Positions 3,448 through 17,760 of a stretch of DNA of 18,256 bases are shown here, one piece after another. Position 1 is the first letter of the stretch. Every line of letters begins with the position of its first letter. The translations under genes and the position numbers were made by a program. The notes under the pieces were generated by a model. The model was not told the origin of the DNA. It searched no databases and saw only the letters and a list, made by a program, of their open reading frames with translations. This stretch comes from Chromatiales bacterium (GTDB taxonomy: Bacteria > Pseudomonadota > Gammaproteobacteria > JACCYU01), in the NCBI GenBank assembly GCA_031177845.1, contig JAPSGG010000003.1, forward strand, positions 1 through 18,256, in the 5' to 3' direction.

Positions 3448-3612
3448 CGCCGCCGTTTCTCTCAGCCTTCCGATTTGTCACCGAGCAGGACATTGAACGA
3501 GTCCAGGGAGGGACTCTCTCAACAGGATGGCCCATCATCGGAGCTGCTAGAGTGCACTCTCCTCCGTGATACTCGCGCCCCAGCGTACGCCGATACATAT
3601 CCAAGCGCTGGT

Positions 3613-4022: not shown

Positions 4023-4053
4023 TTGTCGAATTTGGCCTCCGCCATACGACTAT
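4023..4053 (+). promoter_or_regulatory. ECF42-like promoter, site 1 (YCII-A copy 1)
   Basis: TTGTCGA at 4023-4029 and CGACTAT at 4047-4053 are separated by 17 bases, with TGG-N-CT inside the spacer. The same arrangement occurs at four other places, always upstream of a YCII gene or the SRPBCC-DoxX pair. The YCII gene starts 41 bases downstream. The role as a -35/-10 pair for an ECF42-type sigma factor is inferred from the repeat pattern and the known link of ECF42 with DGPF/YCII genes. Confidence 0.8.
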
Positions 4054-4093
4054 CTTATATCCACAGCTATCCACCACCATTTCGGAGTGCGCC

Positions 4094-4474
4094 ATGAAGT
4101 ATCTATGCCTGGTCTACATAGAAGAGAAGAAGCTGGCCGCCGCGTCTCCTGCCGAGCCGGATGCCTTGAAAGACGACGAGTGTATAGCCTACGACGAGGG
4201 GCTCCGGAAGCGCGGTGTCTGCCTTGCCTCGGAGGCCCTCCAACCGGTCGAGACCGCCACCACCGTCCGGGTCCGCAACGGCAAGGTGTCCATTACCGAC
4301 GGCCCCTTCGCCGAGACGAAGGAGCAGCTGGCCGGGTTTTACCTGATCGACGCTAGGGACTTGAACGAGGCGATCCAGGTGGCCTCGAAGATCCCGCCGG
4401 CGCGCCTGGGCAGCATCGAGGTGCGGCCGATCCGGGAGTTGACCAGCAGTAGCGGCGACAAGCGGATGTATTGA
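4094..4474 (+). CDS. YCII/DGPF-domain protein, type A, copy 1
   Basis: A 126-residue soluble protein of the YCII-related (DGPF) family. It opens MKYLCLVYIEEKK, and the eponymous DGPF is at residues 69-72, followed by AETKEQLAGFYLIDARDLNEA. The fold is a small ferredoxin-like alpha/beta dimer. The biochemical role is unknown, but genes of this type are the standard partners of ECF42 sigma factors. It starts 41 bases after promoter site 1. A 52-codon CPAC ORF follows 13 bases after its stop, then a DUF899 gene, so it should be the first gene of a three-gene operon. A paralogue of the same type lies at 17008. The ATG shown is the only start compatible with the family N-terminus. Confidence 0.9.
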   Translation: MKYLCLVYIEEKKLAAASPAEPDALKDDECIAYDEGLRKRGVCLASEALQPVETATTVRVRNGKVSITDGPFAETKEQLAGFYLIDARDLNEAIQVASKIPPARLGSIEVRPIRELTSSSGDKRMY

Positions 4475-4487
4475 GAGGAGAAGATCC

Positions 4488-4646
4488 ATGTGTCCAGCGT
4501 GCATTGCAACGGCGGCCTGGGAGGTTGCCGGTATCACCTCGACGAGCGGGCTGGCCGTGCTCGTCGCAACCAAGTTCCGCGTCAAGACCGGCGCGAAGAA
4601 AATCCAGACTGACCTAAATCGAAGGAGAAGTCATCATGACAAATAG
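4488..4646 (+). CDS. Small CPAC membrane protein, copy 1
   Basis: A 52-residue ORF beginning MCPACIATAAWEVAG. The N-terminus carries a CxxC pair (C2, C5). Residues about 6-28 form one hydrophobic, small-residue-rich segment able to span a membrane, and the C-terminal half is basic (KFRVKTGAKK). Translation is supported by GAGAGGAG eight bases before the ATG and by an 11-base overlap with the DUF899 start. A diverged copy sits at 17390 in the same position between YCII-A and DUF899-A, with MCPAC, the hydrophobic stretch and K-L/F-RVKT kept. By the positive-inside rule the CxxC end would face the periplasm. I recognise the MCPAC pattern as recurring near DUF899/YCII genes but know no assigned function. 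A redox role is a guess from the CxxC. Confidence 0.72.
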   Translation: MCPACIATAAWEVAGITSTSGLAVLVATKFRVKTGAKKIQTDLNRRRSHHDK

Positions 4647-5373
4647 CACGATAGATAATCCGCGAGTCGTGTCCCGAGATGAGTGGCTCGCCGCGCGAAA
4701 GCAACTCTTGAGCAAAGAAAAGGAGCTCACGAAGTTGCGCGAAAAATTGAGCGTCGAGCGGCGCGAACTGCCTTGGGTCAAGGTGGAGAAGGCGTACGCC
4801 TTCGACACACCGAGCGGCAAGCAGACACTCGCCGACCTCTTCGATGGACGCAGCCAATTGGTCGTCAATCACTTCATGCTCGGTCCTGGGTGGAAGGAGG
4901 GTTGCGTCGGCTGCTCGTTCGGGGCCGACCACATCGAGGGGGCGCTGGTGCATCTCGAGCACCACGATGTGACGGTGGTCGTGGTCTCGCGCGCGCCCCT
5001 ACCCGACATTGAAGCTTACAAGAAGCGCATGGGTTGGTGCTTCAAATGGGTGTCGTCATGCGGCAGCGACTTCAACCACGACTATCACGTGTCCTTCACT
5101 AAGGATGATCTGGCCGAGGGCCAGGTCTATTACAACTACGAAATGACCGAGGCCTCGATTGAGGAACTGCCCGGTCTCAGCGTGTTTTACAAGGATGCGA
5201 CCGGCGATATTTTCCATACCTATTCCACCTACGCGCGCGGCGCCGAAGAGTTGCTAGGCACGTACATGGTACTGGATCTCACGCCGAAGGGCCGCAACGA
5301 GAACGGCCCCAATCACAACCTGATGGACTGGGTGCGGCGCCACGACGAGTACGGCAATCAAGCAAGAGAATAG
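4636..5373 (+). CDS. DUF899 family protein, type A (intact)
   Basis: A 245-residue protein of the DUF899 family, which has a thioredoxin-like fold and no settled biochemical role. It begins with the family signature [25 protein letters not shown] as a charged helix (about 11-40), then ELPWVKVEKAYAFDT and LADLFDGRSQL. The potential redox motif CVGCSF is at C90/C93. The tail has YARGAEELLGTY and NHNLMDWVRRHDEY. Length and all family blocks are complete, so this copy looks functional. AAGGAG lies eight bases before the ATG. The start overlaps the CPAC ORF, implying translational coupling. No signal peptide is seen, so it is presumably cytoplasmic. Two broken and one incomplete relative occur in the window. 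The stretch 5374-5634 after it holds no recognisable gene. Confidence 0.92.
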   Translation: MTNSTIDNPRVVSRDEWLAARKQLLSKEKELTKLREKLSVERRELPWVKVEKAYAFDTPSGKQTLADLFDGRSQLVVNHFMLGPGWKEGCVGCSFGADHIEGALVHLEHHDVTVVVVSRAPLPDIEAYKKRMGWCFKWVSSCGSDFNHDYHVSFTKDDLAEGQVYYNYEMTEASIEELPGLSVFYKDATGDIFHTYSTYARGAEELLGTYMVLDLTPKGRNENGPNHNLMDWVRRHDEYGNQARE

Positions 5374-5634
5374 CAACGCTGCTTGAGCCGAGGAATGCCG
5401 TGCTCCACGGACCCAGAGAGGCGATCGGCAGTGCGGTTGCCGTGCTTTTGCCCGCCCAGGCTCTTAACCACAGGCGGAACTAGGTTCGCCCTGGGCAAGC
5501 GGCGAAAGTTCTAGGCTTCCACGAGCAAGCGCTCGGCTTTCCGCGGCGCTTAGGCGTCGATTTTCTTGAGCGACAGCGATGCGAGCCGCCGGATTGATAC
5601 GGTGGACGCAGGTATTACCCGATCGGCAGGGCCA

Positions 5635-5665
5635 TTGTCGATTCTGGGCTCCACCGGACGACTAT
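5635..5665 (+). promoter_or_regulatory. ECF42-like promoter, site 2 (YCII-B copy 1)
   Basis: TTGTCGA at 5635-5641 and CGACTAT at 5659-5665, 17 bases apart, with TGG-N-CT in the spacer. The following bases (GCGAACAGCCAAT) match those after site 5 at 17702, so the leader of the YCII-B genes is conserved too. The gene starts 40 bases downstream. Confidence 0.8.
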
Positions 5666-5705
5666 GGGCTGCGAACAGCCAATCTACTCTGAACAGGAGG
5701 AAACT

Positions 5706-6251
5706 ATGAAATTCATATGCCTCGGATACATGGAAGAGAAGAAGTGGGACGCTATGTCCCAAAGCGAGCGAGACGCCATGATGAAGGAGTGTTTTGCCTA
5801 CGACGACGTGCTTCGGAAGAAAGGCTACTTCATTGGTGGGGAAGCGCTGCAAAGCGCTCGAAACGCGACCACACTGCGCTGGCAGAACGGCAAGGTTTCC
5901 GTTACCGATAGCCCATTTGCCGCAACAAAGGAGCAGTTAGGGGGAATCCTGGTGCTCGAGGCCAAGGACCTGAATCACGCGATTCAGCTGATGTCGAAGC
6001 ATCCAGGTGTGCGCCTGGGAGGAGGGTTCGAGATTCGCCCGACCGAAGATATCGGGCTCCCGGACAGATTGAGAAGGACACACAGTCAGCATCAAAGGAC
6101 GAATCGTCGTGACGACAAGCACACACGGACATCCGAGAATCGTGCCGCGAGACGAATGGCTCGCTGCCCGCAAGGAAGTGCTGAGCAAGAAAAGGAAGCT
6201 GCCTATGCGCGAGAGGCGCTGAACGCCGAGCCCGGCAGAAGCCGATGGTGA
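5706..6251 (+). CDS. YCII/DGPF-domain protein, type B, copy 1, with aberrant tail
   Basis: Residues 1-120 are a YCII domain close to the copy at 17774 ([36 protein letters not shown]). AGGAGG lies five bases before the ATG. Two things suggest decay. The [10 protein letters not shown] motif reads [10 protein letters not shown] here, with the G and E of the signature changed. After DRL an indel relative to the other copy shifts the frame, so the normal stop that overlaps the DUF899 start is missed. The last 60 or so residues are therefore translated from the adjacent DUF899 relic, part of it in its old frame ([14 protein letters not shown]). The 181-residue product is thus a chance fusion. The core domain may still fold; whether it works is uncertain. 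Confidence 0.7.
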
Positions 6252-6268
6252 AAATCGATGAAGACTAA
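6109..6268 (+). pseudogene. DUF899 type B, copy 1, frameshifted and truncated
   Basis: This follows YCII-B as a DUF899 gene does in copy 2. The first frame (GTG at 6109, where copy 2 has ATG) gives [26 protein letters not shown], with MTTSTH and RDEWLAARK matching the gene at 18181. A shift at the A-rich SKK stretch moves the match to another frame ([14 protein letters not shown]). A second shift moves it to a third frame ([10 protein letters not shown]) ending in TAA at 6266-6268. About 50 of some 245 codons are left. Past 6268, up to 6575, I find no recognisable coding or RNA signal. Confidence 0.8.
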
Positions 6269-6575
6269 CCTTCGAAGGGGGCGGTGGCGAGTTTAGTTTG
6301 TTCTTTGTTGGAGGGGACGCGTGTTGGACTTGGACCCGAGCCAAAGCCGCCAAAGAGACAGAACTTCAAGTGAGTCATGGCACAGCCACGTCCGGTCGGC
6401 TCTACGCTCGCCCGTACGAACTGGGGAACCCGATCCATACCGCGTTTCCTGCGATACGGGGTCGTGCCGCCAACAACTTCATGACTTCGCTTTTTCACGA
6501 CTTTTTCACGCTTGCGTGCGCGGGCCTGTCACGCTGAGTGACTAACCTTGATGCCGTGTAAGGAGGCAACGAGCG

Positions 6576-6746
6576 TTGGCCATGGATACCCAGCCGACCC
6601 TACAACCCTTCGAGAGGAAAGTGCTCATGAACGTGAAAGCATCAACACGCTCCCTAGTGCTGGCCGTGATCGAGGCGCAGGCTGAGAAGTTCATTCCTGA
6701 TCGACAACATCGAGTGTCCGTCACCTCTGCACGCTCGCGAAATTGA
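6576..6746 (+). CDS. Unidentified small ORF upstream of the TetR gene
   Basis: A 56-codon ORF (TTG start at 6576, or ATG two codons later at 6582) with a good ribosome site, AAGGAGG at 6560-6566. The product begins MAMDTQPTLQPFERKVLMN and continues with KASTRSLVLAVIEAQAEKF. I do not recognise it. It has no obvious membrane helix and no cysteines. The stop lies just before the operator palindromes. The internal MNVKASTRSLVLAV could be the start of a former exported protein that lost its frame. Coding status is doubtful; the ribosome site is the main support. Confidence 0.3.
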   Translation: MAMDTQPTLQPFERKVLMNVKASTRSLVLAVIEAQAEKFIPDRQHRVSVTSARSRN

Positions 6747-6750
6747 CCAG

Positions 6751-6787
6751 ACCGTCTGGACGGTTGATAACCGACCGTCCGGACGGT
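6751..6787 (+). promoter_or_regulatory. Tandem TetR operator palindromes
   Basis: Two copies of one 14-base inverted repeat: ACCGTCTGGACGGT at 6751-6764 (one mismatch from symmetry) and ACCGTCCGGACGGT at 6774-6787 (perfect). Their centres are 23 bases apart, about two helical turns. They sit directly before the TetR gene and overlap a possible promoter (TTGACC at 6744). Autorepression of the TetR-RND operon through these sites is the natural reading. Confidence 0.8.
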
Positions 6788-6799
6788 ATGCTATATTTT

Positions 6800-7432
6800 A
6801 TGGTCCGAAAAGACCCTAACGAATTACGGAACAGCCTCTTGGATGCCGCGGAGACAGTCGTCATGCGCCAGGGCATCGCCAATCTTGCGCTCGACGCTGT
6901 GGCAGCCGAGGCGGGCATTAGCAAGGGCGGTCTGCTGCACCACTTCCCGACTAAGGACCGGCTCGTCGAGGCGATGGTCACGCGGACGGCGGATCACTTG
7001 CGCACCTACTACCAGGAGGCATACGAACGTGCCTCGGAAGGGCCGGGGCGGATGTCGCGGGCCCTGCTGAGCACCAGTCTTTCGGACTGCAATTGCTGGT
7101 CGGAGCAGTGCCGGCGGAGTTCGTCCGCGGTGTTTGCGGCGCTGGCTCAGAACCCTTCTTTGATCAAGCCCATGCGCGAGGTCTATAGCGCACTACATCG
7201 GCGCGTCGCTGACGACGACCTGCCTCCGGGCGTCGGCGAGGCAGTTGCCGCGGCGATCGATGGGTTGTGGCTCTACTGGGTGCTGGGGCTGGTTCCGGTA
7301 GACCAAAAGATGATCGTGCGCGTGCGCAAGGCACTCGAAGCTGTGCTGGCGCGGTCGGCGCCTGCGAAACTGGCTCGCTCGTCGAAGGCCAAGATTTCTG
7401 CGGCGAAGCGCTCAGGAAGGCATTGCTCATGA
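6800..7432 (+). CDS. TetR/AcrR-family repressor of the RND operon
   Basis: A 210-residue regulator. The N-terminal DNA-binding part has LLDAAETVVMRQGIANL and a helix-turn-helix at about 29-50 (LDAVAAEAGISKGGLLHHF), then TKDRLVEAMV, all typical of TetR. The C-terminal ligand part (about 60-190) is variable, as usual. Start: ATG 6800 is preferred because it begins the family pattern. ATG 6788 is also in frame but abuts the operator, and an ATG-less extension reaches 6743 through both operator palindromes. Its stop overlaps the next gene's ATG (ATGA), so regulator and adaptor are co-transcribed and probably coupled. The likely role is repression of the pump operon, relieved by a pump substrate; the ligand is unknown. 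A basic tail (KLARSSKAKISAAKRSGR) is a small oddity. Confidence 0.9.
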   Translation: MVRKDPNELRNSLLDAAETVVMRQGIANLALDAVAAEAGISKGGLLHHFPTKDRLVEAMVTRTADHLRTYYQEAYERASEGPGRMSRALLSTSLSDCNCWSEQCRRSSSAVFAALAQNPSLIKPMREVYSALHRRVADDDLPPGVGEAVAAAIDGLWLYWVLGLVPVDQKMIVRVRKALEAVLARSAPAKLARSSKAKISAAKRSGRHCS

Positions 7433-8538
7433 ATCGCCGTGCTTGGATCGGATCCGCTCTCCTTCTCGTGACCGTCATAGGGACGGGCGGTAGCCTCGGC
7501 GCGTGGAAGTACGCGTCCATACAGGAAGCTGATGCTGCCTCTGCAAATCAGCCCGAGCCGGTGGCGCTGGTGAGGGTCGCTGTCGCAAAGAAACGCGAGC
7601 ACCGCGAGACAACAATCTCAATCGGCACGGTCCTGGCCCTGCGTTCGATCACCTTGCTCAATGAGCTACCCGGCACTGTCCGCCAAGTCATGTTCACGCC
7701 GGGGCAAGTCGTCGATGCGGGCACGGTGCTCGTCGCACTCGATGTCTCCGTCGAAGAGGCCGCACTGAAGGCGCAGGAAGCCCGGGCCGCGCTCGCGCAG
7801 ACCATGCTCGAGCGCATGCAGCGGTTGAGTGAGAACCGTGCCGTGTCCGAGACGGAAGTGGACCGCGCGCTCGCGGAACGTGACGTCGCACTGGCGCAGA
7901 TCGCGCGCATCAAGGCGGTCATCGCTCGCAAGACCATTCGCGCACCGTTTCGCGCACGCGTCGGTTTAGCGGACGTACATCCCGGCCAGTATCTCGACCA
8001 GGGCACTTTGCTCACAACCTTGCAGGGCGTAGCCGACGCCGCGCATGTGGATTTCCAGGTCGCGCAGCAAGTCGCCGAGGGTCTGCGGGTCGGCCATAGC
8101 GTCGACGTCTTCACCGGCGACCAGTCCCCAACCCCCGCCAAGATCGTCGCAATCGATGCACGCATCGATCCCTCGACCCGTAACGCCATGGTGCGCGCAC
8201 GGATTGAGGGTGCCGCCAATGCACCCGCGCCAGGCGCTTCCGTCCGGGTCCAAGTTCCGGTCGGCCCGTCGCGGACGCTCGTTGCCATCCCGGTGAGCGC
8301 CCTGCGCAAGGGTCCGGATGGCGATCACGTGTTCGTCATCGGGCCGGACGGCAACGGCAAAAATCGCGCACACCTGCGGCCGGTGGAGAGCGGCGAGGTG
8401 CTGGGCGACGAGGTTTTGATCCGCGCAGGGCTCTCCGCCGGGGAGCAGGTGGCTGCCTCGGGATCGTTCAAGTTGAATGATGCGGCGCTGGTGGCGATCG
8501 CGAACGATCCCGCGCTGGTCGCCAGTCAAGTCAGGTAA
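7429..8538 (+). CDS. RND efflux periplasmic adaptor (membrane fusion protein)
   Basis: A 369-residue HlyD/AcrA-type adaptor linking an inner-membrane RND pump to an outer-membrane channel. An N-terminal membrane anchor or uncleaved signal lies at about 6-26, with no lipobox cysteine. Then come the first lipoyl half (GTVRQVMFTPGQVVDAGTVL, about 82-101), an alpha-hairpin with heptad character (about 108-166), the second lipoyl half (TIRAPFRARVGL), the beta-barrel and the membrane-proximal domain (VAIPVSALRKG, then GLSAGEQVAASGSFKLNDAA). Start ATG 7429 overlaps the TetR stop. The pump gene follows after 191 bases, which hold a long inverted repeat. No outer-membrane factor gene is present, so a channel from elsewhere must be used. 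Confidence 0.93.
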   Translation: MNRRAWIGSALLLVTVIGTGGSLGAWKYASIQEADAASANQPEPVALVRVAVAKKREHRETTISIGTVLALRSITLLNELPGTVRQVMFTPGQVVDAGTVLVALDVSVEEAALKAQEARAALAQTMLERMQRLSENRAVSETEVDRALAERDVALAQIARIKAVIARKTIRAPFRARVGLADVHPGQYLDQGTLLTTLQGVADAAHVDFQVAQQVAEGLRVGHSVDVFTGDQSPTPAKIVAIDARIDPSTRNAMVRARIEGAANAPAPGASVRVQVPVGPSRTLVAIPVSALRKGPDGDHVFVIGPDGNGKNRAHLRPVESGEVLGDEVLIRAGLSAGEQVAASGSFKLNDAALVAIANDPALVASQVR

Positions 8539-8602
8539 TCGGCTGGCCTCAGAGAGCGCACGCCGCTAGGAACGTAACAACCGATTCGGCAGCCAGCAGC
8601 AT

Positions 8603-8687
8603 CTCATCTCGGGCGCAGCGAGAGATCTTTGGTGTATGCCCATCTTAAAGCAAGGAATCAAGATTCCTCGCTGTGCTCGGAATGACA
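8603..8687. repeat. Imperfect inverted repeat (REP/MITE-like) between adaptor and pump genes
   Basis: The left arm at 8603-8630 contains GCGCAGCGAGAGATCTTT. The right arm at 8660-8687 (AAGATTCCTCGCTGTGCTCG, then GAATGACA) pairs with it over about 28 bases at roughly three quarters identity, around a 29-base loop. The arm type GTCATTCCGAGCxxAGCGAGGAATCTT is a widespread dispersed intergenic repeat in several bacterial groups. A related arm occurs at 16848. In RNA it would form a strong hairpin within the operon. Confidence 0.65.
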
Positions 8688-8729
8688 GTGACTACTGCAC
8701 TGCCCGTCGGAAGTAACTAGGACATCCAC

Positions 8730-11700
8730 ATGCGCTCTTTCACCGATATCTTCATCAAACACCCCGTACTCGCGGTGGTGGTCAATCTCGTGATCGTGCT
8801 CGTGGGCTGGCGAGCGCTCTCGACTCTACCCGTGCAGCAGTATCCACAGCTCGAGAGTTCGTCGGTGGTGATCACGACGGTCTACACCGGGGCCAGCGCC
8901 GAGACCGTGCGCGGCTTCCTGACCACGCCGATCGAGCGCGCTGTGTCGGCGATCGGCGGTGTCGAGTACGTCGAGTCCACCAGCCGCGCCGGCATCAGTA
9001 CCGTCACCGTGCGCCTGAAGTTGGATCACAGCAGCACAGCGGCACTTGCGGAAGTCACAGCGAGATTACAGCAGGTCCGTGCGGAGCTGCCGGCGGAAGC
9101 CGAGCCACCGGTGGTCGAGGTGCAGCGCGCGGATCGACCATACGCGACGTTTTACTTGAGCTTCACCTCCACCGAGCGTGATGTGCCTGGGATCACCGAC
9201 TGGCTGCTGCGCACTCTGCAACCGCAACTCTCAACCCTGGAGGGCGTCCAGCGCGTCACTATCGAGGCTGGGCGCCAGATCGCCATGCGCGTCTGGATCG
9301 ATCCCGATCGCCTGGCCGCGCTCAATCTCTCGCCCGGTGACGTATACAGAGCCTTGCAACGCAACAACTATCTCGCCGCCGTCGGCCGCACCAAGAGCAA
9401 CCTCATGCAGGTCAACCTGCTCGCGAACACGGACCTGCGCTCCGTCGGCGAATTCAAGAACCTGATCGTCGCCGACCGCGGTGGCGCCATCGTGCGCCTC
9501 GCCGATGTGGCGCGGGTGGAGCTTGGCGCCGAGGAAGCGGAGATGGTGGCCAAGTACAACGAGCAGCAGGCCGTTTACCTCGGGGTGTGGCCGCTGCCCG
9601 GCTCTAACGAGATCGAAGTCGCAGGGCGGCTGCGCGAGGAGATGGCGCGTATCCGGCCGACCCTACCTGCGGACATCGACATGCGTCTCGTCTGGGACGG
9701 GACGATGTTCATGCGCGACGCGCTCAAGGAGATCACCAAGACGCTGTCCGAGACCATCCTGATCGTCGGCTTGGTGGTGTACCTGTTCATGGGGCCTATC
9801 CGCACGGCGCTGGTGCCGCTGGTCGCGATGCCGATCTCCCTGATCGGCGCGGCACTCATCATGTTCGCGCTCGGTTTCAGCCTGAACCTTCTGAGTCTCC
9901 TTGCTCTGGTGCTGTCAGTCGGCCTGGTCGTCGACGATGCCATCGTCGTCGTCGAGAACGTCGCGCGCCACGTGCGCCAGGGCAAATCGCGGATCGAAGC
10001 GGCGCTGGCCGGCGCGCGCGAATTGCGCGGGCCAATCGTCGCGATGACGATCACCTTGGCTACGGTTTACACGCCCATCGCCTTTCAGGGTGGCCTGACC
10101 GGCTCGCTGTTTCTAGAGTTCGCGATCACCTTGGCCGCCGCGGTGGTCGTATCGGGCTTCGTCGCGCTCACCCTCTCACCGGTGATGAGCTCGCGCTTCG
10201 TGCATCCGCACGGCAAGGAAGGTCGTCTGACCACGCTGGTCAATTGGGCCTTCGATGGCGTGAGCCGCGTCTACGCGCGCATGCTCGACGTCGCGCTCGA
10301 AATGCGCTGGGTGATCGTCGCAGCCGCGTTACTAATCATGGTTGCGGCCTGGCCGCTGCACACGTTCTCCAAGAAAGAACTCGCGCCTGCCGAAGACCAG
10401 AGTCATATCAGCCTGTTTCTGGAAGCTTCGCCCGACTCAAGCTTGGAGGCGGTCAATCGCGAGTCACGCAAAGTCGTGCGCACGATCACCGCGTTCCCGG
10501 AGGCGGAATTCATGTGGTCGCTGACCGCGGCCTGGGGCGGCTTCGGCGGCATGGTCGCAAAGGACTGGACAGAACGCGAACGCTCGACTGAAGAGATGTT
10601 CGGTGACGTCTACGCTGCGGTCTCGCAGGTGCCGGGTTTGCGCGTGTTCCCGCGCCTCGACCCGCCGTTGCCAACACCCGGTCAGTATGACGTCGAATTG
10701 GTGCTACAGAGCAACGCGCCGGCCGAGCAGATGCTTGACATTGCCCAGCAAATCGTGAACGCCGGCTGGCAAAGTGGCAAGTTTCTGTACGTCGACACCG
10801 ACCTGAAGATCGACCTGCCAGAGGCGAGAGTCGTGCTCGATCGCGAGCGGATCGCCGACCTCGAGCTGGATCTAGCGACTGTCGCGCAGGAGTTGGGCAC
10901 CTTGCTCGGCGGCGATTACGTGAACCGCTTCAACTACTTCGACCGCAGCTACAAGGTCATCCCGCAGATCGGCGATGAGGACCGTGCCACCGTCGGCCCC
11001 TTGCTTGACCTCAAGATCAAGACGCCGAGTGGTGAACTCGTGCCGGTGTCGACCTTCACGCGCATTGAAACGAGCACCGCGCCGCGCGCCTTGAACCGCT
11101 TCCAGCAGCGCAACGCGGTACGCATTTTCGGCGGCGTGAAGCCGGGCGTCACGAAGGAAGAAGGGCTGCGCGTCTTAGAGGCCGCCGCGGCCACGGCGGG
11201 CGGTCCGGAGATCGTGCTCGATCACGCCGGCGAGTCGCGCCAGATCCGTTGCGAGGGTGGGGCACTCACGGTCACGCTCGGGTTCGCAGTCGTGCTCATC
11301 TATCTGGTGCTCGCGGCGCAGTTTCAAAGCTTCCGCGATCCACTGATCGTGCTCTTAGGATCGGTGCCGCTCGCGATCTCCGGCGCGCTGGTGTTCAGCT
11401 TCCTGGACCTCACCACGATCAACATCTACTCGCAGGTCGGACTGATCACCTTAGTGGGACTAATCGCCAAGAACGGCATCCTGATTGTGGAGTTCGCCAA
11501 CACCTTGCGGGAGCGCGGGCTTGAGAAGATGGCCGCGCTGCGCGAAGCGTCGTTGACACGCCTTCGGCCGGTGCTGATGACCTCTGCGGCCACTGTCTTC
11601 GGGCACCTTCCACTCGTACTGGTAACCGGTCCCGGCGCCGAGGCCCGCAACAGCATTGGGACAATCCTGGTCGCCGGTATGATCGTCGGCACCGTGTTCA

Positions 11701-11852
11701 CCCTGTTCGTGGTGCCAGTGTTCTATTCGCTCATCGCGGCTCGGCACCAGCCGGACCCGGCGAACGACGAACTTGAACAGGAGCCACCTATCGCTGCGCC
11801 TATACTTCCTCTAGATGCAATCTCATACCAGAGGCTCCAATCAGCACATTAA
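8730..11852 (+). CDS. RND multidrug efflux pump, HAE1 family
   Basis: A 1040-residue inner-membrane proton/drug antiporter of the AcrB/MexF type. It begins MRSFTDIFIKHPVLAVVVNL (TM1). A large periplasmic loop follows (about 35-335), then TM2-6 with the proton-relay aspartates in VGLVVDDAIVVVENVARHVR (D402, D403). A second periplasmic loop follows (about 555-860), then TM8-12 with LAAQFQSFRDPL and the relay lysine K914 in GLIAKNGILIVEFANTLRER. The length equals that of functional family members and no frame break is seen. It is the third gene of the TetR-adaptor-pump operon. The last 25 or so residues (after ARHQPDPANDELEQEPP) are unlike family tails and abut a transposase relic, so the original C-terminus may have been replaced. 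Substrates cannot be predicted. Confidence 0.95.
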   Translation: MRSFTDIFIKHPVLAVVVNLVIVLVGWRALSTLPVQQYPQLESSSVVITTVYTGASAETVRGFLTTPIERAVSAIGGVEYVESTSRAGISTVTVRLKLDHSSTAALAEVTARLQQVRAELPAEAEPPVVEVQRADRPYATFYLSFTSTERDVPGITDWLLRTLQPQLSTLEGVQRVTIEAGRQIAMRVWIDPDRLAALNLSPGDVYRALQRNNYLAAVGRTKSNLMQVNLLANTDLRSVGEFKNLIVADRGGAIVRLADVARVELGAEEAEMVAKYNEQQAVYLGVWPLPGSNEIEVAGRLREEMARIRPTLPADIDMRLVWDGTMFMRDALKEITKTLSETILIVGLVVYLFMGPIRTALVPLVAMPISLIGAALIMFALGFSLNLLSLLALVLSVGLVVDDAIVVVENVARHVRQGKSRIEAALAGARELRGPIVAMTITLATVYTPIAFQGGLTGSLFLEFAITLAAAVVVSGFVALTLSPVMSSRFVHPHGKEGRLTTLVNWAFDGVSRVYARMLDVALEMRWVIVAAALLIMVAAWPLHTFSKKELAPAEDQSHISLFLEASPDSSLEAVNRESRKVVRTITAFPEAEFMWSLTAAWGGFGGMVAKDWTERERSTEEMFGDVYAAVSQVPGLRVFPRLDPPLPTPGQYDVELVLQSNAPAEQMLDIAQQIVNAGWQSGKFLYVDTDLKIDLPEARVVLDRERIADLELDLATVAQELGTLLGGDYVNRFNYFDRSYKVIPQIGDEDRATVGPLLDLKIKTPSGELVPVSTFTRIETSTAPRALNRFQQRNAVRIFGGVKPGVTKEEGLRVLEAAAATAGGPEIVLDHAGESRQIRCEGGALTVTLGFAVVLIYLVLAAQFQSFRDPLIVLLGSVPLAISGALVFSFLDLTTINIYSQVGLITLVGLIAKNGILIVEFANTLRERGLEKMAALREASLTRLRPVLMTSAATVFGHLPLVLVTGPGAEARNSIGTILVAGMIVGTVFTLFVVPVFYSLIAARHQPDPANDELEQEPPIAAPILPLDAISYQRLQSAH

Positions 11853-12030: not shown

Positions 12031-12069
12031 CTTGTTTGACAGCTCACGGGCCGAGCAGTACTGTGCCTT

Positions 12070-12368: not shown

Positions 12369-12403
12369 GGATTCGCTGCACACCAGCAGTAAGGCGACTA
12401 ACC

Positions 12404-13864
12404 ATGTCCCAGTCCATCGACGACTCACCGCAGGCGAACCTCGTCACGGAGCTTCCGAGCCGTCACGTACCTGCGGCGAAGTACGCCGATCTTCCAGAGG
12501 CACAGCCGCTCAGGCGAGTGCTCGGCCCAAGCGTGCTGCTGCTCGCCGGAGCGATCGGGTCCGGCGAGTATGTGCTCTGGCCCTACATCACCTCCCAGGT
12601 GGGGCTGGTTCTGGTCTGGCTCGTGGTCCTCGGTGTGGGCACGCAGTACTTCCTCAACATGGAGATCGAGCGCTATACCCTTGCCACCGGCGAGACGGCC
12701 GTCATCGGGTTCACCCGGTTGTGGAAGCACTGGGGCTGGCTGTTCATCATCATGACGGTCGTGCCGTGGGCTTGGCCAGGATGGGCGACGGGCGGTACAA
12801 CGACACTGAGCTTCGCGCTCGGTTTCTCGGAGGACGCCGTCCCGTACGTTACGATCGGTGTCCTGGTGCTCATCGGCGTGGTGCTGACGGTCTCGCCGGT
12901 GGTGTACCGGACCGTGGAGAAGATCCAGTTCTTCATGGTGGCGCTGATCGTGCTGTTCATCGTCTACGCAGCGATCTTCCTGATCGGCGGGGACGGGTAT
13001 AACGGTCTCGGTCGCGGCTTCCTCGAGGTCGACAAGATCCCAGCCGGAATCGCGGCGCTCGGCGCGGCCACGCTGCTCGGCGCGATTGCGTTCGCCGGCG
13101 CGGGTGGCGCGATGAACCTGGTCCAGTCCAACTGGGTGCGCGACAAAGGGCTGGGGATGGGGGCGCGCCTGCCGAAGGTGGTATCGCCGTTCACGGGCGA
13201 GGAGGTCGCCGCACCGACCACGGGCTACTTCTTCAGGCGCGACGAGGAGAATATGCGCCGGTGGAACGCCTGGTGGAAGGTCGCGCACCGCGAGCAGTTC
13301 ATCACGTTCTTCGTGATCGGCGGGGTCACGCTACTGGTGTTCATGGCGCTGACCTTCGTCACAGTGGGAACCGGCATTGCCGAGGAGAGCTTCGATTTTA
13401 TTCGAATCCAGGGCGAAGCCCTCAAGGACACCGGGGGCGCCTGGCTCGGCACAACGTTCTGGCTGATCGGCAGCGTCGTGCTATTCTCGACCAACCTGAC
13501 CGTGCTCGACATGGTCGGCCGGTTGACGGCGGACGTGCTCAAGACCGGTGCGCTCCGCGACAGCTACCGGTGGAGCGAGAGCCGGCTGTACTTCATCACC
13601 GTCTGGCTGGAGATCACGTTCGGGTCGATCATCCTGCTCTCGGGTGTCAACCAGCCGCTGGTGCTGCTCGTGATCGCCTCGTCGCTGAACGGCATAGTGA
13701 TGTTCGTGTACTCGGTGCTGCTGATCCGGCTCAATCGTGGCGTGCTGCCCAGGGAAATCGGGCTTAAGGGCGGCCGTCTCGTCGTACTCGCGTGGGCCGT
13801 GCTGTTCTACGGCGGCTTCTCGGCCGTCCTCTTGGTCGACCAGGCACAGAAGCTATTCGGCTAG
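12404..13864 (+). CDS. Nramp-related membrane transporter lacking the metal-site motif
   Basis: A 486-residue integral membrane protein with about 11-12 hydrophobic helices of the Nramp (SLC11-like, LeuT-fold) family. True Nramp metal importers carry DPGN in helix 1 and MPH in helix 6. Here helix 1 reads GAIGSGEYVLWPY (GSGE at 52-55) and helix 6 reads FAGAGGAMNLVQSNWVRDKG (N238). This places it in the diverged GxGE branch, whose substrate is not established; transport of Mn or Fe by the canonical mechanism is unlikely. Start ATG 12404 gives a charged cytoplasmic N-terminus; an extension to 12311 would read through the glcF relic. A hydrophilic loop (about 247-300) separates helices 6 and 7. 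It appears monocistronic and is convergent with lrgAB. Confidence 0.88.
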   Translation: MSQSIDDSPQANLVTELPSRHVPAAKYADLPEAQPLRRVLGPSVLLLAGAIGSGEYVLWPYITSQVGLVLVWLVVLGVGTQYFLNMEIERYTLATGETAVIGFTRLWKHWGWLFIIMTVVPWAWPGWATGGTTTLSFALGFSEDAVPYVTIGVLVLIGVVLTVSPVVYRTVEKIQFFMVALIVLFIVYAAIFLIGGDGYNGLGRGFLEVDKIPAGIAALGAATLLGAIAFAGAGGAMNLVQSNWVRDKGLGMGARLPKVVSPFTGEEVAAPTTGYFFRRDEENMRRWNAWWKVAHREQFITFFVIGGVTLLVFMALTFVTVGTGIAEESFDFIRIQGEALKDTGGAWLGTTFWLIGSVVLFSTNLTVLDMVGRLTADVLKTGALRDSYRWSESRLYFITVWLEITFGSIILLSGVNQPLVLLVIASSLNGIVMFVYSVLLIRLNRGVLPREIGLKGGRLVVLAWAVLFYGGFSAVLLVDQAQKLFG

Positions 13865-14045
13865 GCTGGTTGCCGTCTGAACGGACCTTCCCGTCCGCGA
13901 TACCTCCCGGAAAGGGCGCATACCGGATTTTGGCGGGGCACTCGAGACGGGATGGTCCGCGGCGCGCTCGGCTTCAATTTTGTTGCCGCTGTCGCGACTA
14001 GTCCGCGTCCATAAAATGGAGGTCGTCTTCTTGTGGTTGGCACTA

Positions 14046-14062
14046 GTCCAGAAGTTCTGGAC
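14046..14062. repeat. 17-base perfect palindrome between convergent genes
   Basis: GTCCAGAA-G-TTCTGGAC is symmetric over eight bases on each side of one central base. It lies 19 bases beyond the end of lrgB and about 180 beyond the transporter gene. There is no T-tract, and a one-base loop makes a hairpin terminator poor. It could be a protein-binding site or an old element end. The remainder of 13865-14081 shows no gene. Confidence 0.45.
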
Positions 14063-14081
14063 AGACTTGTTCAGAGCTTCT

Positions 14082-14807
14082 TTACATTGCTCTCAACCAG
14101 GCAATCGTGAGTGGCATCACCGCGGCCGCGATCAGACCGTGCAGGCCAAGCGCAAGTCCGGCGAAGGCGCCCATCGCGGCGCTCTCTTGGAATGCGTGCG
14201 CCGTGCCGATGCCGTGAGCAGCCGTTCCCAGTGCATAACCGGACACCAGCGGGTTTCGCACACCGGCGGCGGCGAACAGATAAGGCGCCACGACGGCGCC
14301 CAGAATTCCCGTGATAATGCAGTAGACGGCGGTGAGCGCGGGATTGCCGCCGATTCTTTCGCTGATCCCCATTGCGATCGGCGCCGTCACCGACTTCGGG
14401 AGTAAGGACATCAGCGTTTCCATGCTCCCGCCCATCAGCCATGCAATGCCGACCGCACTCAGCGCACTCGCCGCGCCACCGCAGAGCAAGGCCAGCAGCA
14501 AGGGCCAGCGATGGCGTTTAAGCGTCGGTAGCTGCGCAGCCATGGGGACAGCCAGTGCCACCGTTGCCGGGCCCAATAAGAAATGGACGAACTGCGCGCC
14601 CTCGAAGTATCTGGGGTACGGGATGCCCATCAATGTCAGCAGAGCCACGAGCACGGCGACCGCGATGGCCACGGGATTTGCGAGCGGATGAAGGCGCAAC
14701 GATCTTGCCACGTACAAGCCCGCGCAGTAGGCCAGCAGAGTAAAGGTGAGGCCGGAGAGGGGCGAGGTGGAGAGATACACCCATAGTTGAAAGAATTCTT
14801 CCCTCAT
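14082..14807 (-). CDS. lrgB: LrgB/CidB-family membrane protein
   Basis: A 241-residue inner-membrane protein with about six to seven helices, from MREEFFQLWVYLS to the C-terminal AAAVMPLTIAWL. Family blocks visible: FLLGPATVALAVPMAAQL, LPKSVTAPIAMGISE, IGGNPALTAVYCIITG, and ALGTAAHGIGTAHAFQES. LrgB/CidB pairs with LrgA/CidA. The pair is linked to control of murein hydrolase activity and, in other organisms, to export of small organic acids such as glycolate or pyruvate. ATG 14807 overlaps the lrgA stop (ATGA), so the two are coupled. Upstream in-frame codons to 14909 lie inside lrgA and are not used. Confidence 0.92.
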   Translation of the reverse strand: MREEFFQLWVYLSTSPLSGLTFTLLAYCAGLYVARSLRLHPLANPVAIAVAVLVALLTLMGIPYPRYFEGAQFVHFLLGPATVALAVPMAAQLPTLKRHRWPLLLALLCGGAASALSAVGIAWLMGGSMETLMSLLPKSVTAPIAMGISERIGGNPALTAVYCIITGILGAVVAPYLFAAAGVRNPLVSGYALGTAAHGIGTAHAFQESAAMGAFAGLALGLHGLIAAAVMPLTIAWLRAM

Positions 14808-15154
14808 TGACGCTCGTCCTCGTTCTCGACGAGTGCTTTCAGTACCCACACAGTCACGCCCAAGCCAATCAGGGTACTGATCACGACAGACACGAGGATC
14901 ACGAGCCACTCGCGCGCGAGGGCAGGGGAATACAGCATCACACCGACACCAGCGGGAACAAAGAGCAGCGACAGATGGCTGTGCAGCGCTGACGCTGCGT
15001 CAGTGAGGTTCGCAGGCGTGGCGCTTCGAAACCACAAGACCAGGAACAGAAAGAGCAGACCTATGACCGGCCCAGGTACCGGAAGCTCTAGCCCGCGCGC
15101 CACGAGCTCGCCTGCCAGCTGGAACGCTAAGAAGATGGTAAAGCCCTCGATCAC
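14804..15154 (-). CDS. lrgA: LrgA/CidA-family holin-like protein
   Basis: A 116-residue membrane protein with four predicted helices. The family opening is present (FLAFQLAGELVARGLELPVP, then GPVIGLLFLF), followed by LTDAASALHSHLSLLFVPAGVGVMLY and a final helix. This matches CidA/LrgA in length and order. The start is GTG 15154; no better ATG is in frame and the N-terminus agrees with relatives. It is the first gene of an lrgAB operon reading leftward. A TATACT box lies about 30 bases upstream at 15183-15188 (minus strand), but no convincing -35 was found. Confidence 0.9.
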   Translation of the reverse strand: MIEGFTIFLAFQLAGELVARGLELPVPGPVIGLLFLFLVLWFRSATPANLTDAASALHSHLSLLFVPAGVGVMLYSPALAREWLVILVSVVISTLIGLGVTVWVLKALVENEDERQ

Positions 15155-15359
15155 ACAAGGAATCTCCGGCAGAGGATTGAGGCAAGTATAACCCTGCCAC
15201 TACTTCGTTCCGGTCTTACGGCGGATTCAAAGAGGCGAGCTCAGATACTTCTGGTAGATATGCGGGCGCGCCCGTCGCACCCGAGTTCATCTGGACGGTG
15301 CTTCCTTACACGTCGCGATGTGGGCACAACCGCGAGCCGTGCTTCTTCTGCGAAGGAGG

Positions 15360-15701
15360 CTACACCGCTAGCGTTATCGGCTGGGCAAAGCGTTTAACGA
15401 ATGCGGCTGCGGGCTCCATGTCGACGCTTTGATGGCCGCCCACATACACCCGCTGTTGAACCTGCGGAAGACCGCAATCGCGCCACGTGTCGAGCTGCGA
15501 ACGTTCCTATTTCGGGCTCGGAACCATGGAGACGGGCGTGTGCTCCATCTTTACCTTGCGCTCGTGCGGCTTGAGCCCCTCAATTTCAAGCTCGCTGGCC
15601 GAGCTCATCTCCTTAATAATCTGCTGACTATCTTGCTCCCAGATCAGTGGTATCTCCATTAAGACTCCGAGGGCTTCCTGATACTTGACGCACTGGTTAC
15701 C
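15360..15701 (-). pseudogene. Unidentified coding relic with an internal stop
   Basis: On the minus strand a frame runs from 15701 to TAG 15360-15362 with one internal TAG at 15507-15509. The first part contains an ATG at 15659 and reads MEIPLIWEQDSQQIIKEMSS, then ELEIEGLKPHERKVKMEH. After the internal stop it reads QLDTWRDCGLPQVQQRVYVG, then HQSVDMEPAAAFVKRFAQPI. The composition looks like a real soluble protein rather than an antisense shadow, and no gene opposes it. I cannot name the family. It covers most of the otherwise gene-free stretch 15155-15811; the rest holds promoter site 3 and nothing else I recognise. Confidence 0.35.
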
Positions 15702-15729
15702 TCACAGGAGCAAGCGCAGCGTCAGCGTA

Positions 15730-15760
15730 TTGTCGAATATGGTCTTCCCAGAACGACTAT
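15730..15760 (+). promoter_or_regulatory. ECF42-like promoter, site 3 (SRPBCC-DoxX)
   Basis: TTGTCGA at 15730-15736 and CGACTAT at 15754-15760, 17 bases apart, with TGG-N-CT in the spacer. Unlike the other four sites it precedes non-YCII genes, with the SRPBCC start 51 bases downstream. This argues that the shared pattern reflects a common regulator rather than only duplicated YCII flanks. Confidence 0.78.
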
Positions 15761-15811
15761 CGAGTGTAGATAACCTACTTAATAACACTTGAAAGAATAA
15801 GGAGAGCGATC

Positions 15812-16300
15812 ATGGCGACATTAAGTAAGAATGGTACGACGACGTTCACGACGCCGCCGGGTCGGGAGATCGTGATGACGCGTGTCATTGACGCACCGCG
15901 CAGACTCGTCTTTGAGGCTTGGACTAATCCGAAGCACTTGCCGCACTGGATGTTGGGTCCGAGCGGCTGGACCATGCCCGTCTGCCAGATCGATCTTAAG
16001 CCCGGTGGGGCGTGGCACTTCGTCTGGCGCCGTTCCGACGGCACCGAGATGGGGATGCGCGGCGAATATCGAGAAATCACGCCGCCCGAGCGGCTCGTCT
16101 CCACCGAATCGTGGGGAGGCGACTGGCCAGAAACGCTCAACACGCTGATCCTCTCCGGGGAGCATGGCAAGACGACGATCACGCTCACGGTTCTCTACCC
16201 ATCGAAGAAGGCTCGCGACGCGGCACTTCAGACGGGGATGAAGGAAGGCGTGTCTCAGAGCTTCGATCGCCTCGCCGAGTACCTGCGAACGGTGGCATGA
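15812..16300 (+). CDS. SRPBCC (AHSA1-like) domain protein
   Basis: A 162-residue soluble protein of the SRPBCC/AHSA1 group, a helix-grip fold with a deep hydrophobic cavity that binds ligands in many unrelated roles. Visible blocks: IVMTRVIDAPRRLVFEAWTN (about 20-39), then PKHLPHWMLGPSGW, KPGGAWHFVWRRSDG, MRGEYREITPPERLVSTESW, then TITLTVLYPS and the C-terminal helix with GMKEGVSQSFDRLAEYL. AAGGAGAG at 15799-15806 supports the start. Such proteins are common in ECF41/ECF42-type gene neighbourhoods. A DoxX gene follows after 58 bases, so the two probably form one transcript from promoter site 3. The ligand is unknown. Confidence 0.92.
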   Translation: MATLSKNGTTTFTTPPGREIVMTRVIDAPRRLVFEAWTNPKHLPHWMLGPSGWTMPVCQIDLKPGGAWHFVWRRSDGTEMGMRGEYREITPPERLVSTESWGGDWPETLNTLILSGEHGKTTITLTVLYPSKKARDAALQTGMKEGVSQSFDRLAEYLRTVA

Positions 16301-16358
16301 ACCGCACCGGGGGCGTAACGGATCATGGAGCGCCGGATGGGTCCCATCGGAGACGGTT

Positions 16359-16772
16359 ATGAATGATAAAGCCTTGAGGCAAGCCCTGTTTCCCGTGCTG
16401 CTGGTGCTACGCGTCACGCTCGGACTGTTTCTGCTCCAGTGGGGCATTGAAAAGTTCGTCGTGCCGCAGAACACCGTCGCTATCTGGAGCTACTTCTACG
16501 GCCTCAACGTCCCTCAAGCACTAGGGTACGTTTTCGGCGCTGTGGAGATCGCCATCGCCGTGTGCCTGTTTCTCGGCGTGTTCCGCACCGTCGTGTATGG
16601 CGGGGCGCTCGCCTTGCATGCGGTCAGCATGCTCGTGTCCTGGCGGCAGCTCCTCGATCCCTGGGGCGATCCCTCTAATCATCTCTTCATCGCGGGCCTT
16701 CCCGTGCTCGGCGCTTTGGTCGCGCTGTTCCTGCTGCGGCATTGGGATCGTGGCGTTCTGGATCGGGAATAG
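16359..16772 (+). CDS. DoxX-family small membrane protein
   Basis: A 137-residue protein with four hydrophobic helices, at about 10-30 (LFPVLLVLRVTLGLFLLQWG), 50-72, 76-92 and 104-123. The start of the family pattern is clear: R-x-x-L-G-x-x-x-x-xWGxEKF. DoxX-like proteins are inner-membrane proteins tied in different organisms to thiosulfate/quinone oxidation or to oxidative and thiol stress; the specific reaction here is unknown. It follows the SRPBCC gene on the same strand. GGAGACGG lies a few bases before ATG 16359. An uninterrupted GCCCGCGCGGGC palindrome lies just after the stop, directly before promoter site 4. Confidence 0.87.
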   Translation: MNDKALRQALFPVLLVLRVTLGLFLLQWGIEKFVVPQNTVAIWSYFYGLNVPQALGYVFGAVEIAIAVCLFLGVFRTVVYGGALALHAVSMLVSWRQLLDPWGDPSNHLFIAGLPVLGALVALFLLRHWDRGVLDRE

Positions 16773-16790
16773 ACAGCCCGCGCGGGCCTC

Positions 16791-16821
16791 TTGTCGATTT
16801 TGGCCTATGTCGAACGACTAT
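16791..16821 (+). promoter_or_regulatory. ECF42-like promoter, site 4 (YCII-A copy 2)
   Basis: TTGTCGA at 16791-16797 and CGACTAT at 16815-16821, spacing 17, with TGG-N-CT present. The next bases (CTAATATCCA) match those after site 1 (CTTATATCCA), showing common descent of the YCII-A leaders. The gene is 187 bases away instead of 41, because extra DNA with a repeat arm lies in the leader. Confidence 0.78.
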
Positions 16822-16847
16822 CTAATATCCAGAAAGCTTCGAGGAAG

Positions 16848-16930
16848 TGTCATTTCGACAGTAGCGAGATATCTTGAAGAATCAGTCGATTACGGGATTA
16901 CAAGATCTCTCCCGGAGCTCGCCCCGAGTG
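16848..16930. repeat. Diverged repeat element in the leader of YCII-A copy 2
   Basis: TGTCATTTCGACAGTAGCGA followed by GATATCTT (16848-16875) matches the reverse complement of the right arm at 8660-8687 in about 21 of 28 positions. A second arm starting CAAGATCTCTC at 16901 can pair with the end of the first arm and resembles the other element's right side more weakly. It therefore looks like an eroded member of the same repeat family, placed between promoter and gene. Confidence 0.5.
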
Positions 16931-17007
16931 TACCTGAGGGGGTCTAGATAACAAAGCATACGTTAGTCAGCGACTTACATCGTTCACAACTGTGTCAAGA
17001 GGTGACC

Positions 17008-17358
17008 ATGAAATACGTACTGTTCTGTTGCACCGAGGAAAAGAAGCTTAACGCCCTGTCCGAAGGCGAGATGATCGGCCTCATGAACGAGACCATGGCC
17101 TACATCGAAGCGCTTCGCAAAAGCGGCCACTACATTGCCTCGGAACGTCTCCAACCGGTTGAGACTGCCACCATGGTGCGGGTCCGAAACGGCAAGCTGT
17201 CCACTACCGACGGACCTTTCGCCGAGACCAAGGAGCAGCTGGGCGGTTTCTGGCTCATTGAGGCCAGGGACCTGAACGAGGCTATCCAGGTGGCATCGAG
17301 GTTCCCGTCCGCGCGGATCGGAGGTATAGAGGTGCGCCCGGTCGCGGACTGCCGATAG
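17008..17358 (+). CDS. YCII/DGPF-domain protein, type A, copy 2
   Basis: A 116-residue YCII-family protein (MKYVLFCCTEEKKLNALSEG) with DGPF at 68-71 followed by [20 protein letters not shown]. It is the paralogue of the gene at 4094; the stretch from LQPVETAT through EVRP is nearly the same. Start ATG 17008 is chosen over GTG 17002 because AGAGG lies five bases before it and the family begins MKY. Promoter site 4 is 187 bases upstream across a repeat element, so expression may differ from copy 1. The CPAC ORF follows after 31 bases. The signature motif is intact, so the protein is probably functional. Confidence 0.9.
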   Translation: MKYVLFCCTEEKKLNALSEGEMIGLMNETMAYIEALRKSGHYIASERLQPVETATMVRVRNGKLSTTDGPFAETKEQLGGFWLIEARDLNEAIQVASRFPSARIGGIEVRPVADCR

Positions 17359-17389
17359 CGCCGGCCAATCTTCGAGAGACGAAGGCCCC

Positions 17390-17542
17390 ATGTGTCCAGC
17401 ATGCATGGCATTGGCGGCCTGGGCCGTCGCCGGCGCGGGCTCTGCAGGTGGGCTGGTCGTGCTATCGGTAATCAAGCTCCGCGTCAAGACCAGCGTGAAG
17501 AAAACACGGGCGCGACCGAAATCCAGAGAGAAGTCATCATGA
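17390..17542 (+). CDS. Small CPAC membrane protein, copy 2
   Basis: A 50-residue ORF: MCPACMALAAWAVAGAGSAG, then GLVVLSVIKLRVKTSVKK and a basic end. It is a diverged paralogue of the ORF at 4488. The CPAC pair (C2, C5), the tryptophan at 11, the Gly/Ala-rich hydrophobic helix and the RVKT basic segment are kept, while other positions differ. Preservation of frame and pattern suggests selection. Its TGA overlaps the next ATG (ATGA). The DUF899 gene it couples to is truncated here, so the small protein survives without its intact neighbour. Confidence 0.68.
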   Translation: MCPACMALAAWAVAGAGSAGGLVVLSVIKLRVKTSVKKTRARPKSREKSS

Positions 17543-17760
17543 TCGAGGGCACCATGACACTCCCGAAAATCGTATTGCGAGATGAGTGGCTTGCGCGTGA
17601 GCAACGCATGAGCGACGAGCAGGAACTCACCGAGCCGTCAGCCAAACTTGGAGCCGAACGGGGCAAGTTTCCAGGTTCCGCAGGTATTTCGTGGCGGCCC
17701 GCTGTCGACATTGGGCTCTGCCAAACGACTATAGGGTGCGAACAGCCAATTCACTATTGA
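17539..17760 (+). pseudogene. DUF899 type A, copy 2, truncated to the N-terminal helix
   Basis: A 73-codon frame. The first 45 or so codons are DUF899-like (IVLRDEWLAREQRMSDEQEL, then AERGKFP), corresponding to [14 protein letters not shown] in the intact copy. After GKFP the similarity stops. The DNA becomes like the region just before promoter site 2 (GCAGGTATT occurs in both), and the frame runs through promoter site 5 into unrelated codons. A deletion seems to have joined the start of DUF899 to the upstream region of the next unit. The CVGCSF motif and the whole thioredoxin-like core are lost. Its ribosome site is also weaker (AGAGAG versus AAGGAG). Confidence 0.78.
17702..17732 (+). promoter_or_regulatory. 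ECF42-like promoter, site 5 (YCII-B copy 2)
   Basis: CTGTCGA at 17702-17708 and CGACTAT at 17726-17732, spacing 17, with TGG-N-CT in the spacer. It lies inside the read-through end of the truncated DUF899 frame. The leader after it (GCGAACAGCCAAT) matches site 2. The gene starts 41 bases downstream. Confidence 0.8.

What the first reader, a model, noticed from the sequence alone, without database searches (positions are those of the whole stretch)
4023..17732. Five identical-spacing ECF42-like promoters define a local regulon
TGTCGA-17-CGACTAT occurs at 4024, 5636, 15731, 16792 and 17703, always on the plus strand. Each site lies upstream of a YCII gene or the SRPBCC-DoxX pair. I saw no other full match in intergenic DNA. 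YCII/DGPF genes are the known partners of ECF42 sigma factors, and ECF42 promoters, as I recall, have TGTCGA at -35 and a CGA-type -10. No sigma gene is in the window, so it should lie just outside or act from elsewhere.
Basis: partly seen in the sequence, partly recalled or inferred. Interest (0 to 1): 0.8.

Follow-up and report, generated by a model that had tools for sequence, protein, structure and literature searches.

The report
ECF42 stress sigma-factor gene cluster
Five near-identical switches in front of a set of small, poorly understood bacterial genes look like the start sites used by one known kind of stress sigma factor, whose gene sits on another piece of the same genome; this is a well-formed new example of a known system rather than a new one.

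Summary
TGTCGA-N17-CGACTAT occurs five times in the window, always on the plus strand, and nowhere else in the 2.1 Mb draft genome. Four sites precede the window's four YCII genes, one an SRPBCC-DoxX pair. The missing sigma gene exists: the one DUF6596 (ECF42-type) gene found in the genome, on contig C256, which starts one base before it. In 80 named relatives of that sigma, TGTCGA-N17-CGACTA occurs 68 times, 49 within 250 bp upstream of a YCII gene, 1.6% of the sequence. An unbiased word-pair search ranks the same element first. The spacing equals that of promoters reported for the ECF42 sigma RpoE10 (PMC6180224, passages). So this is most likely an ECF42 regulon: a new member of a known kind. 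Assembly loss or real loss is open. Regulation itself was not tested.

The parts
4024..4053 (+). ECF42-type promoter 1 (TGTCGA -35, CGACTAT -10)
   Evidence: exact; matrix score 38.7 bits
4094..4474 (+). YCII (DGPF) gene 1
   Evidence: PF03795 E 1.3e-23; DGPF read from the translation
4636..5373 (+). DUF899 gene, the only copy found by the family search of the genome
   Evidence: PF05988 E 2e-97; only hit
5636..5665 (+). ECF42-type promoter 2
   Evidence: 35.0 bits
5706..6107 (+). YCII gene 2 (DSPF in place of DGPF); its open frame runs on to 6251
   Evidence: PF03795 E 1.7e-18; 81% identical to copy 4
6109..6216 (+). N-terminal DUF899 remnant behind YCII 2
   Evidence: tblastn 57% over 37 columns
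15731..15760 (+). ECF42-type promoter 3
   Evidence: 29.6 bits
15812..16300 (+). SRPBCC/AHSA1 gene
   Evidence: PF08327 E 8e-31
16359..16772 (+). DoxX gene, 58 bp after the SRPBCC gene
   Evidence: PF07681 E 2.9e-6
16792..16821 (+). ECF42-type promoter 4
   Evidence: 38.0 bits
17008..17358 (+). YCII (DGPF) gene 3
   Evidence: PF03795 E 1.2e-22
17539..17673 (+). N-terminal DUF899 remnant behind YCII 3
   Evidence: tblastn 48% over 46 columns
17703..17732 (+). ECF42-type promoter 5
   Evidence: 31.9 bits
17774..18184 (+). YCII (DGPF) gene 4
   Evidence: PF03795 E 1.5e-19
18181..18256 (+). start of a further DUF899 gene, cut by the contig end
   Evidence: tblastn 72% over 25 aa

Best explanation
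The five sites are promoters read by RNA polymerase carrying the ECF42 sigma factor encoded on contig C256 (417 aa), the only one found in this genome. When the C-terminal extension of that sigma is in its active state, it starts transcription of four YCII genes, the DUF899 gene behind the first, and an SRPBCC-DoxX pair. The cluster grew by repeated duplication of a promoter-YCII-DUF899 unit, in which promoter and YCII gene were kept while DUF899 copies decayed. Shown: sites, genes, sigma gene, and their association across genomes. Inferred: recognition by this sigma, the activating signal, and the duplication history.
For: Exact motif only here in the genome. One ECF42-type sigma gene found in the genome, on a contig that fits the family by NuoD. 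In 80 named sigma relatives: TGTCGn-N17-CG[AT]C within 250 bp upstream of 63 of 155 YCII genes and the N16 form of 12, against 6 and 2 on the opposite strand and 0 for the reversed pattern at these spacings (one of the 63, in L064, is an artefact). Exact core: 49 of 68 occurrences lie before YCII genes, in 1.6% of strand-bases. An unbiased 5-mer pair search puts GTCGA-17-CGACT first, in 50 of 153 upstream regions. Over 369 genomes of the class, the core motif is in 11 of 33 with DUF6596 and 33 of 336 without (Fisher p 5e-4; 1.6e-3 without the own genome). A DUF899 match ends just before an ECF42 sigma gene in L040 and L070 and in G175, whose sigma is 81-85% identical to this one. Motifs reported for S. 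meliloti RpoE10 (ECF42) read TGTCGG-N17-CGTC (PMC6180224, passages; spacing counted by hand); the genes it raised include a hydrophobic-ligand-binding protein and glyoxalase-like proteins.
Against: Same-family genomes G001 and G002 have such arrays and 5 and 4 core motifs, yet no DUF6596 match, no full-length homologue of this sigma (G001 has only a C-terminal match of 39-45 residues) and no sigma region 4 frame longer than 272 aa. G030 (93% complete) has motif-YCII but no ECF42 match either. 22 of 33 DUF6596 genomes in the class lack the exact core. Of 80 sigma relatives, 27 had no YCII or DUF899 match within 600 bp (some contigs are short). In S. meliloti the YCII-rpoE10 operon carries a near-identical motif but was not raised by RpoE10 overexpression, which the authors explain by overlap of the motif with the mapped start (PMC6180224). 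The sigma contig begins at the sigma gene, so its own promoter and any link to the window cannot be seen; upstream of nuoA C256 does not match G001 (368 bp available) or G002, so a misjoin in C256 is not excluded.
Confidence: 0.86

Rival explanations
1. The sites are promoters of a different ECF sigma factor that shares these targets, and the ECF42 gene is not needed.
For: Arrays and motifs are present in G001, G002 and G030, in which no ECF42 gene was found; each has other sigma-70 genes.
Against: Across 80 loci found through the ECF42 sigma protein alone, the motif sits before YCII genes near that sigma gene; motif and DUF6596 co-occur over 369 genomes; S. meliloti ECF42 motifs have the same spacing.
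Confidence: 0.08
2. The sites are operators for a dimeric transcription factor: TGTCG-N18-CGAC is a partial inverted repeat.
For: The two half-sites are partly complementary, which gives the minus-strand near-matches.
Against: The right half is CGACTA, not the CGACA that a dyad needs: position 28 is T in 48 and A in 4 of 64 sites, position 29 is A in 59 of 64. Orientation is strongly biased (63 against 6 genes at N17) and the distance to the start codon is short (median 48 nt).
Confidence: 0.04
3. The motif is only a passenger of recent duplication of YCII units.
For: Sites 5636 and 17703 lead duplicated units: 83% DNA identity, 65% in the 40 nt after the site.
Against: All other flank pairs are at most 42% identical while the motif is invariant, and the motif is kept in relatives from many phyla.
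Confidence: 0.01

Closest known systems
ECF42 group of sigma factors (Streptomyces venezuelae Sven_0747 and others, Pseudomonas putida ECF-10; from the review PMC8999054, passages read)
   Same: Sigma regions 2 and 4 with a roughly 200-residue C-terminal extension; conserved YCII gene nearby in relatives.
   Different: Here the sigma gene is on another contig, and one 18 kb contig carries five promoters and four YCII genes.
Sinorhizobium meliloti RpoE10 (ECF42) regulon (PMC6180224, passages read)
   Same: Motif TGTCGG-N17-CGTC with the same spacing; raised genes include a hydrophobic-ligand-binding protein and glyoxalase-like proteins; a YCII gene (SMc01151) lies upstream of rpoE10 and carries the motif.
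   Different: Here -35 is TGTCGA and -10 is CGACTAT; DUF899 and DoxX are added; targets are clustered. In S. meliloti the YCII gene itself was not raised by RpoE10.

Membership tests
ECF42 sigma factor (gene on C256) | Sigma-70 regions 2 and 4 | tested here: met
   PF04542 E 6.4e-8 and PF08281 E 3.9e-12, both over cut-off
ECF42 sigma factor (gene on C256) | Long C-terminal extension (DUF6596), no SnoaL domain | tested here: met
   417 aa; DUF6596 131.6 bits over residues 187-286; no SnoaL match at E 0.001. That DUF6596 marks ECF42 is recalled, not taken from a call
ECF42 sigma factor (gene on C256) | TPR repeats in the extension | tested here: inconclusive
   TPR_2 at 370-400, E 1.8e-5, 25.0 bits, below its cut-off of 27; TPR_12 also below cut-off
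ECF42 sigma factor (gene on C256) | YCII gene in the gene neighbourhood | tested here: inconclusive
   The contig starts at the sigma gene and nuoA follows about 0.9 kb downstream; of 80 relatives 53 have a YCII or DUF899 match within 600 bp on the same strand (13 upstream, 44 downstream, 4 of them both), 27 none
ECF42 promoter | TGTCG(A/G)-N17-CG(A/T)C upstream of target genes | tested here: met
   Five exact sites; same spacing in RpoE10 motifs; relatives
ECF42 promoter | Transcription depends on the ECF42 sigma | not testable with these tools
   Needs expression data
ECF42 sigma factor (gene on C256) | No cognate anti-sigma factor next to it | tested here: inconclusive
   The 0.9 kb between sigma and nuoA holds no listed plus-strand ORF of 100 aa or more and one minus-strand ORF of 119 aa that was not searched; upstream is not in the contig

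The most novel reading that the evidence does not exclude
In part of this family the ECF42 sigma gene has been lost or swapped while its promoters and target array persist, so another sigma factor, or one supplied in trans, reads ECF42 promoters. The isolated C-terminal sigma piece in G001 would be a trace of the loss.
Probability: 0.15. Interest if true: 0.55.

Novelty: new member of a known kind. Interest (0 to 1): 0.35.

Why it matters
ECF42 is a widespread sigma group whose signal and target functions are poorly known. This locus gives a compact regulon with five near-identical promoters, and the 80-locus comparison gives a usable consensus (TGTCGA, then mostly WTT, a 17-base spacer ending mostly CCG(A/T)(A/T), then CGACTA) for finding candidate targets, such as DUF899, SRPBCC, SnoaL-like, glyoxalase-like and BNR-repeat genes. 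Genomes with arrays in which no sigma gene was found make it testable whether these promoters can be served by another sigma.

Tried and rejected
Genome-wide scan with 2 mismatches: 34 hits against 21 in the control, so no further regulon members were claimed. An exact overlap of 9-150 bases between the window's right end and the left end of C256 was looked for and not found (other orientations of C256's left end were not tested); a search of the own genome with the window's last 657 bases found only places in the window itself, so the two contigs could not be linked. Sigma genes upstream of nuoA in G001 and G002: G001's contig starts 368 bp before nuoA; G002 has about 1.4 kb there without sigma similarity. 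A true palindromic operator was rejected on the asymmetry of the right half. NCBIfam: 36 matches for the sigma, 25 shown, of which only the sigma70-ECF superfamily model passes its cut-off; nothing for the six other proteins given. Solved structures: six ordinary ECF sigma matches. Papers: ECF42 with promoter and DGPF, TGTCGA with extracytoplasmic function and DUF899 with YCII listed none. ECF42 alone listed 11, of which I read passages of five: PMC8999054, PMC6180224, PMC9023288, PMC9205884, PMC8103513. YCII with sigma factor and promoter listed 10, and DGPF or DUF899 with sigma one each; of these I opened only the two already named. Two main ECF42 papers (Liu 2018; Tettmann 2014) are not held and Wu 2019 was not looked up, so their motifs are not compared directly. 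That DGPF proteins and a TGTCGA-type -35 are ECF42 hallmarks is also recalled by me.

For this I lowered the main confidence from 0.88 to 0.86 and raised the other-sigma rival from 0.06 to 0.08.
Full report
Observation. The exact string TGTCGA-N17-CGACTAT is present at 4024, 5636, 15731, 16792 and 17703, all on the plus strand. In the draft genome (2.1 Mb, 408 contigs, 78.5% complete) TGTCGA-N17-CGACTA occurs exactly five times, all in this contig, and the reversed-pattern control zero times. Relaxing to two mismatches gives 34 hits against 21 control hits, so nothing else stands out. The genes behind the sites are YCII (4094, 5706, 17008, 17774) and an AHSA1/SRPBCC gene followed by DoxX (15812, 16359). 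The family search finds five YCII genes in the genome; four are these, and the fifth is on C177, a contig without an exact motif.

Anatomy. The intact first unit is promoter-YCII-DUF899. Behind YCII 2 and YCII 3 only short N-terminal DUF899 matches remain (6109-6216 and 17539-17673), and behind YCII 4 a new DUF899 gene starts and is cut by the contig end. YCII 2 and 4 are 81% identical proteins and their DNA regions 83%. YCII 2 reads DSPF where the others read DGPF. Site flanks are otherwise dissimilar (20-42% identity) while the motif is unchanged.

The sigma gene. A search with Pfam DUF6596 finds one gene in the genome, on contig C256. The 417-residue protein has sigma region 2, region 4, DUF6596 and a TPR match below its cut-off. 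The contig starts one base before its start codon; about 0.9 kb after its stop comes nuoA and further nuo genes (named from their sequence). The NuoD on C256 is 92% and 91% identical to those of the two same-family genomes and at most 86% to those of the other 53 relatives searched, so the contig fits this bin. Whether the sigma gene lies next to the window could not be settled: no end overlap was found. A DUF899 match ending right before an ECF42 sigma gene occurs in L040 and L070 and in G175, which fits the cut DUF899 gene at the window's right end, but this is inference.

Conservation. From this sigma protein 80 named loci were fetched (the best 80 of 554 confirmed), in bacteria of many phyla by their record titles. 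They hold 155 YCII matches in 74 loci. TGTCGn-N17-CG[AT]C lies within 250 bp upstream of 63 of the 155 genes and the N16 form of 12, against 6 and 2 on the opposite strand, 0 to 3 at other spacings, and 0 for the reversed pattern at N16 and N17 (L064 is an artefact). So about half of the YCII matches show no such site. The last base of the -35 is A in 63 of 64 N17 sites (the exception is the L064 artefact) and the -10 is CGAC in 63 of 64, although other bases were allowed. The spacer is partly conserved: mostly WTT after the -35 and CCG(A/T)(A/T) before the -10. The exact core occurs 68 times in 2.4 Mb of strand, 49 of them before YCII genes; the N16 form 15 times, 10 of them before YCII genes; the reversed core once. 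For each of the 19 other N17 cores a script picked a candidate downstream ORF, some of them doubtful. The 10 of these 19 given to Pfam all matched families: SnoaL-like, 3-dmu-9/glyoxalase, BNR-repeat, RibD_C and DUF2652. Without assuming a motif, the commonest spaced pair of 5-mers in 153 upstream regions is GTCGA-17-CGACT, in 50.

Co-occurrence. Of 369 genomes of the class, 33 have DUF6596 and 44 have the core motif; 11 have both (Fisher p 5e-4, or 1.6e-3 without the own genome). Of the eight genomes with two or more core motifs, five have DUF6596. The association is real but loose: 22 DUF6596 genomes lack the exact core, and many single hits are probably chance, since the reversed control also hits many genomes (not summed).

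Arrays without a sigma gene found. The three exceptions with several motifs are G001, G002 and G030. G001 and G002 are the only same-family genomes held. On G001:C59 and G002:C60 four core motifs each lie in or beside arrays with YCII and DUF899 genes, and the G002 array also holds GST, GFA, DUF1428, SnoaL and glyoxalase genes. The window's YCII-DUF899 unit and its TetR-RND pump genes match G002:C60 in the same order. No ECF42 gene was found in either genome, and their sigma region 4 frames are at most 272 aa. G001 has a match of 39 residues or 45 to the sigma C-terminus, in a frame of 82-87 aa. Draft genomes can lose accessory genes, so I give real loss a low probability.

Comparison with known systems. 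PMC8999054 (passages) describes ECF42 as having a TPR-rich extension of about 200 residues and a conserved YCII neighbour. PMC6180224 (passages) lists motifs for RpoE10 of S. meliloti that read TGTCGG-N17-CGTC by my count; the genes raised at least 2-fold encode a hydrophobic-ligand-binding protein, two proteins with glyoxalase-like domains and one without predicted function. The YCII gene before rpoE10 carries the motif but was not raised, which the authors explain by overlap with the mapped start. The window differs in TGTCGA and CGACTAT, in clustering and in the added DUF899 and DoxX genes. The mechanism proposed is the known one; direct control by this sigma remains untested.

Noticed in passing
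window 6743-11852: TetR regulator followed by what read as a membrane-fusion and an RND transporter gene (by eye); conserved in order next to the YCII array in G002:C60, but with no exact motif directly before TetR in the window.
   Followed up: partly
L158 (G002:C60) around 6140, minus strand: A core motif precedes what looks, by eye, like the start of a YCII gene (MRFMMIVKTTEW) that soon leaves the family just before the TetR gene: perhaps a promoter that outlived its gene (not searched).
   Followed up: partly
L238 (G175:C134) 6934-8174 and L165 (G054:C58) 9672-10879: ECF42 sigma matches fall in two segments in these drafts, either sequencing error or decay.
   Followed up: no
window 14082-15154, minus strand: Two overlapping membrane proteins that look like LrgB and LrgA by eye (recalled, not searched).
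   Followed up: no
window 2551-3447: CAP-domain (PF00188) protein with a long N-terminal stretch.
   Followed up: no
L161 (G001:C140) 3456-3590, minus strand: Isolated C-terminal piece of an ECF42-like sigma gene (49% over 45 aa) with no other sigma match in the 5.3 kb held.
   Followed up: partly
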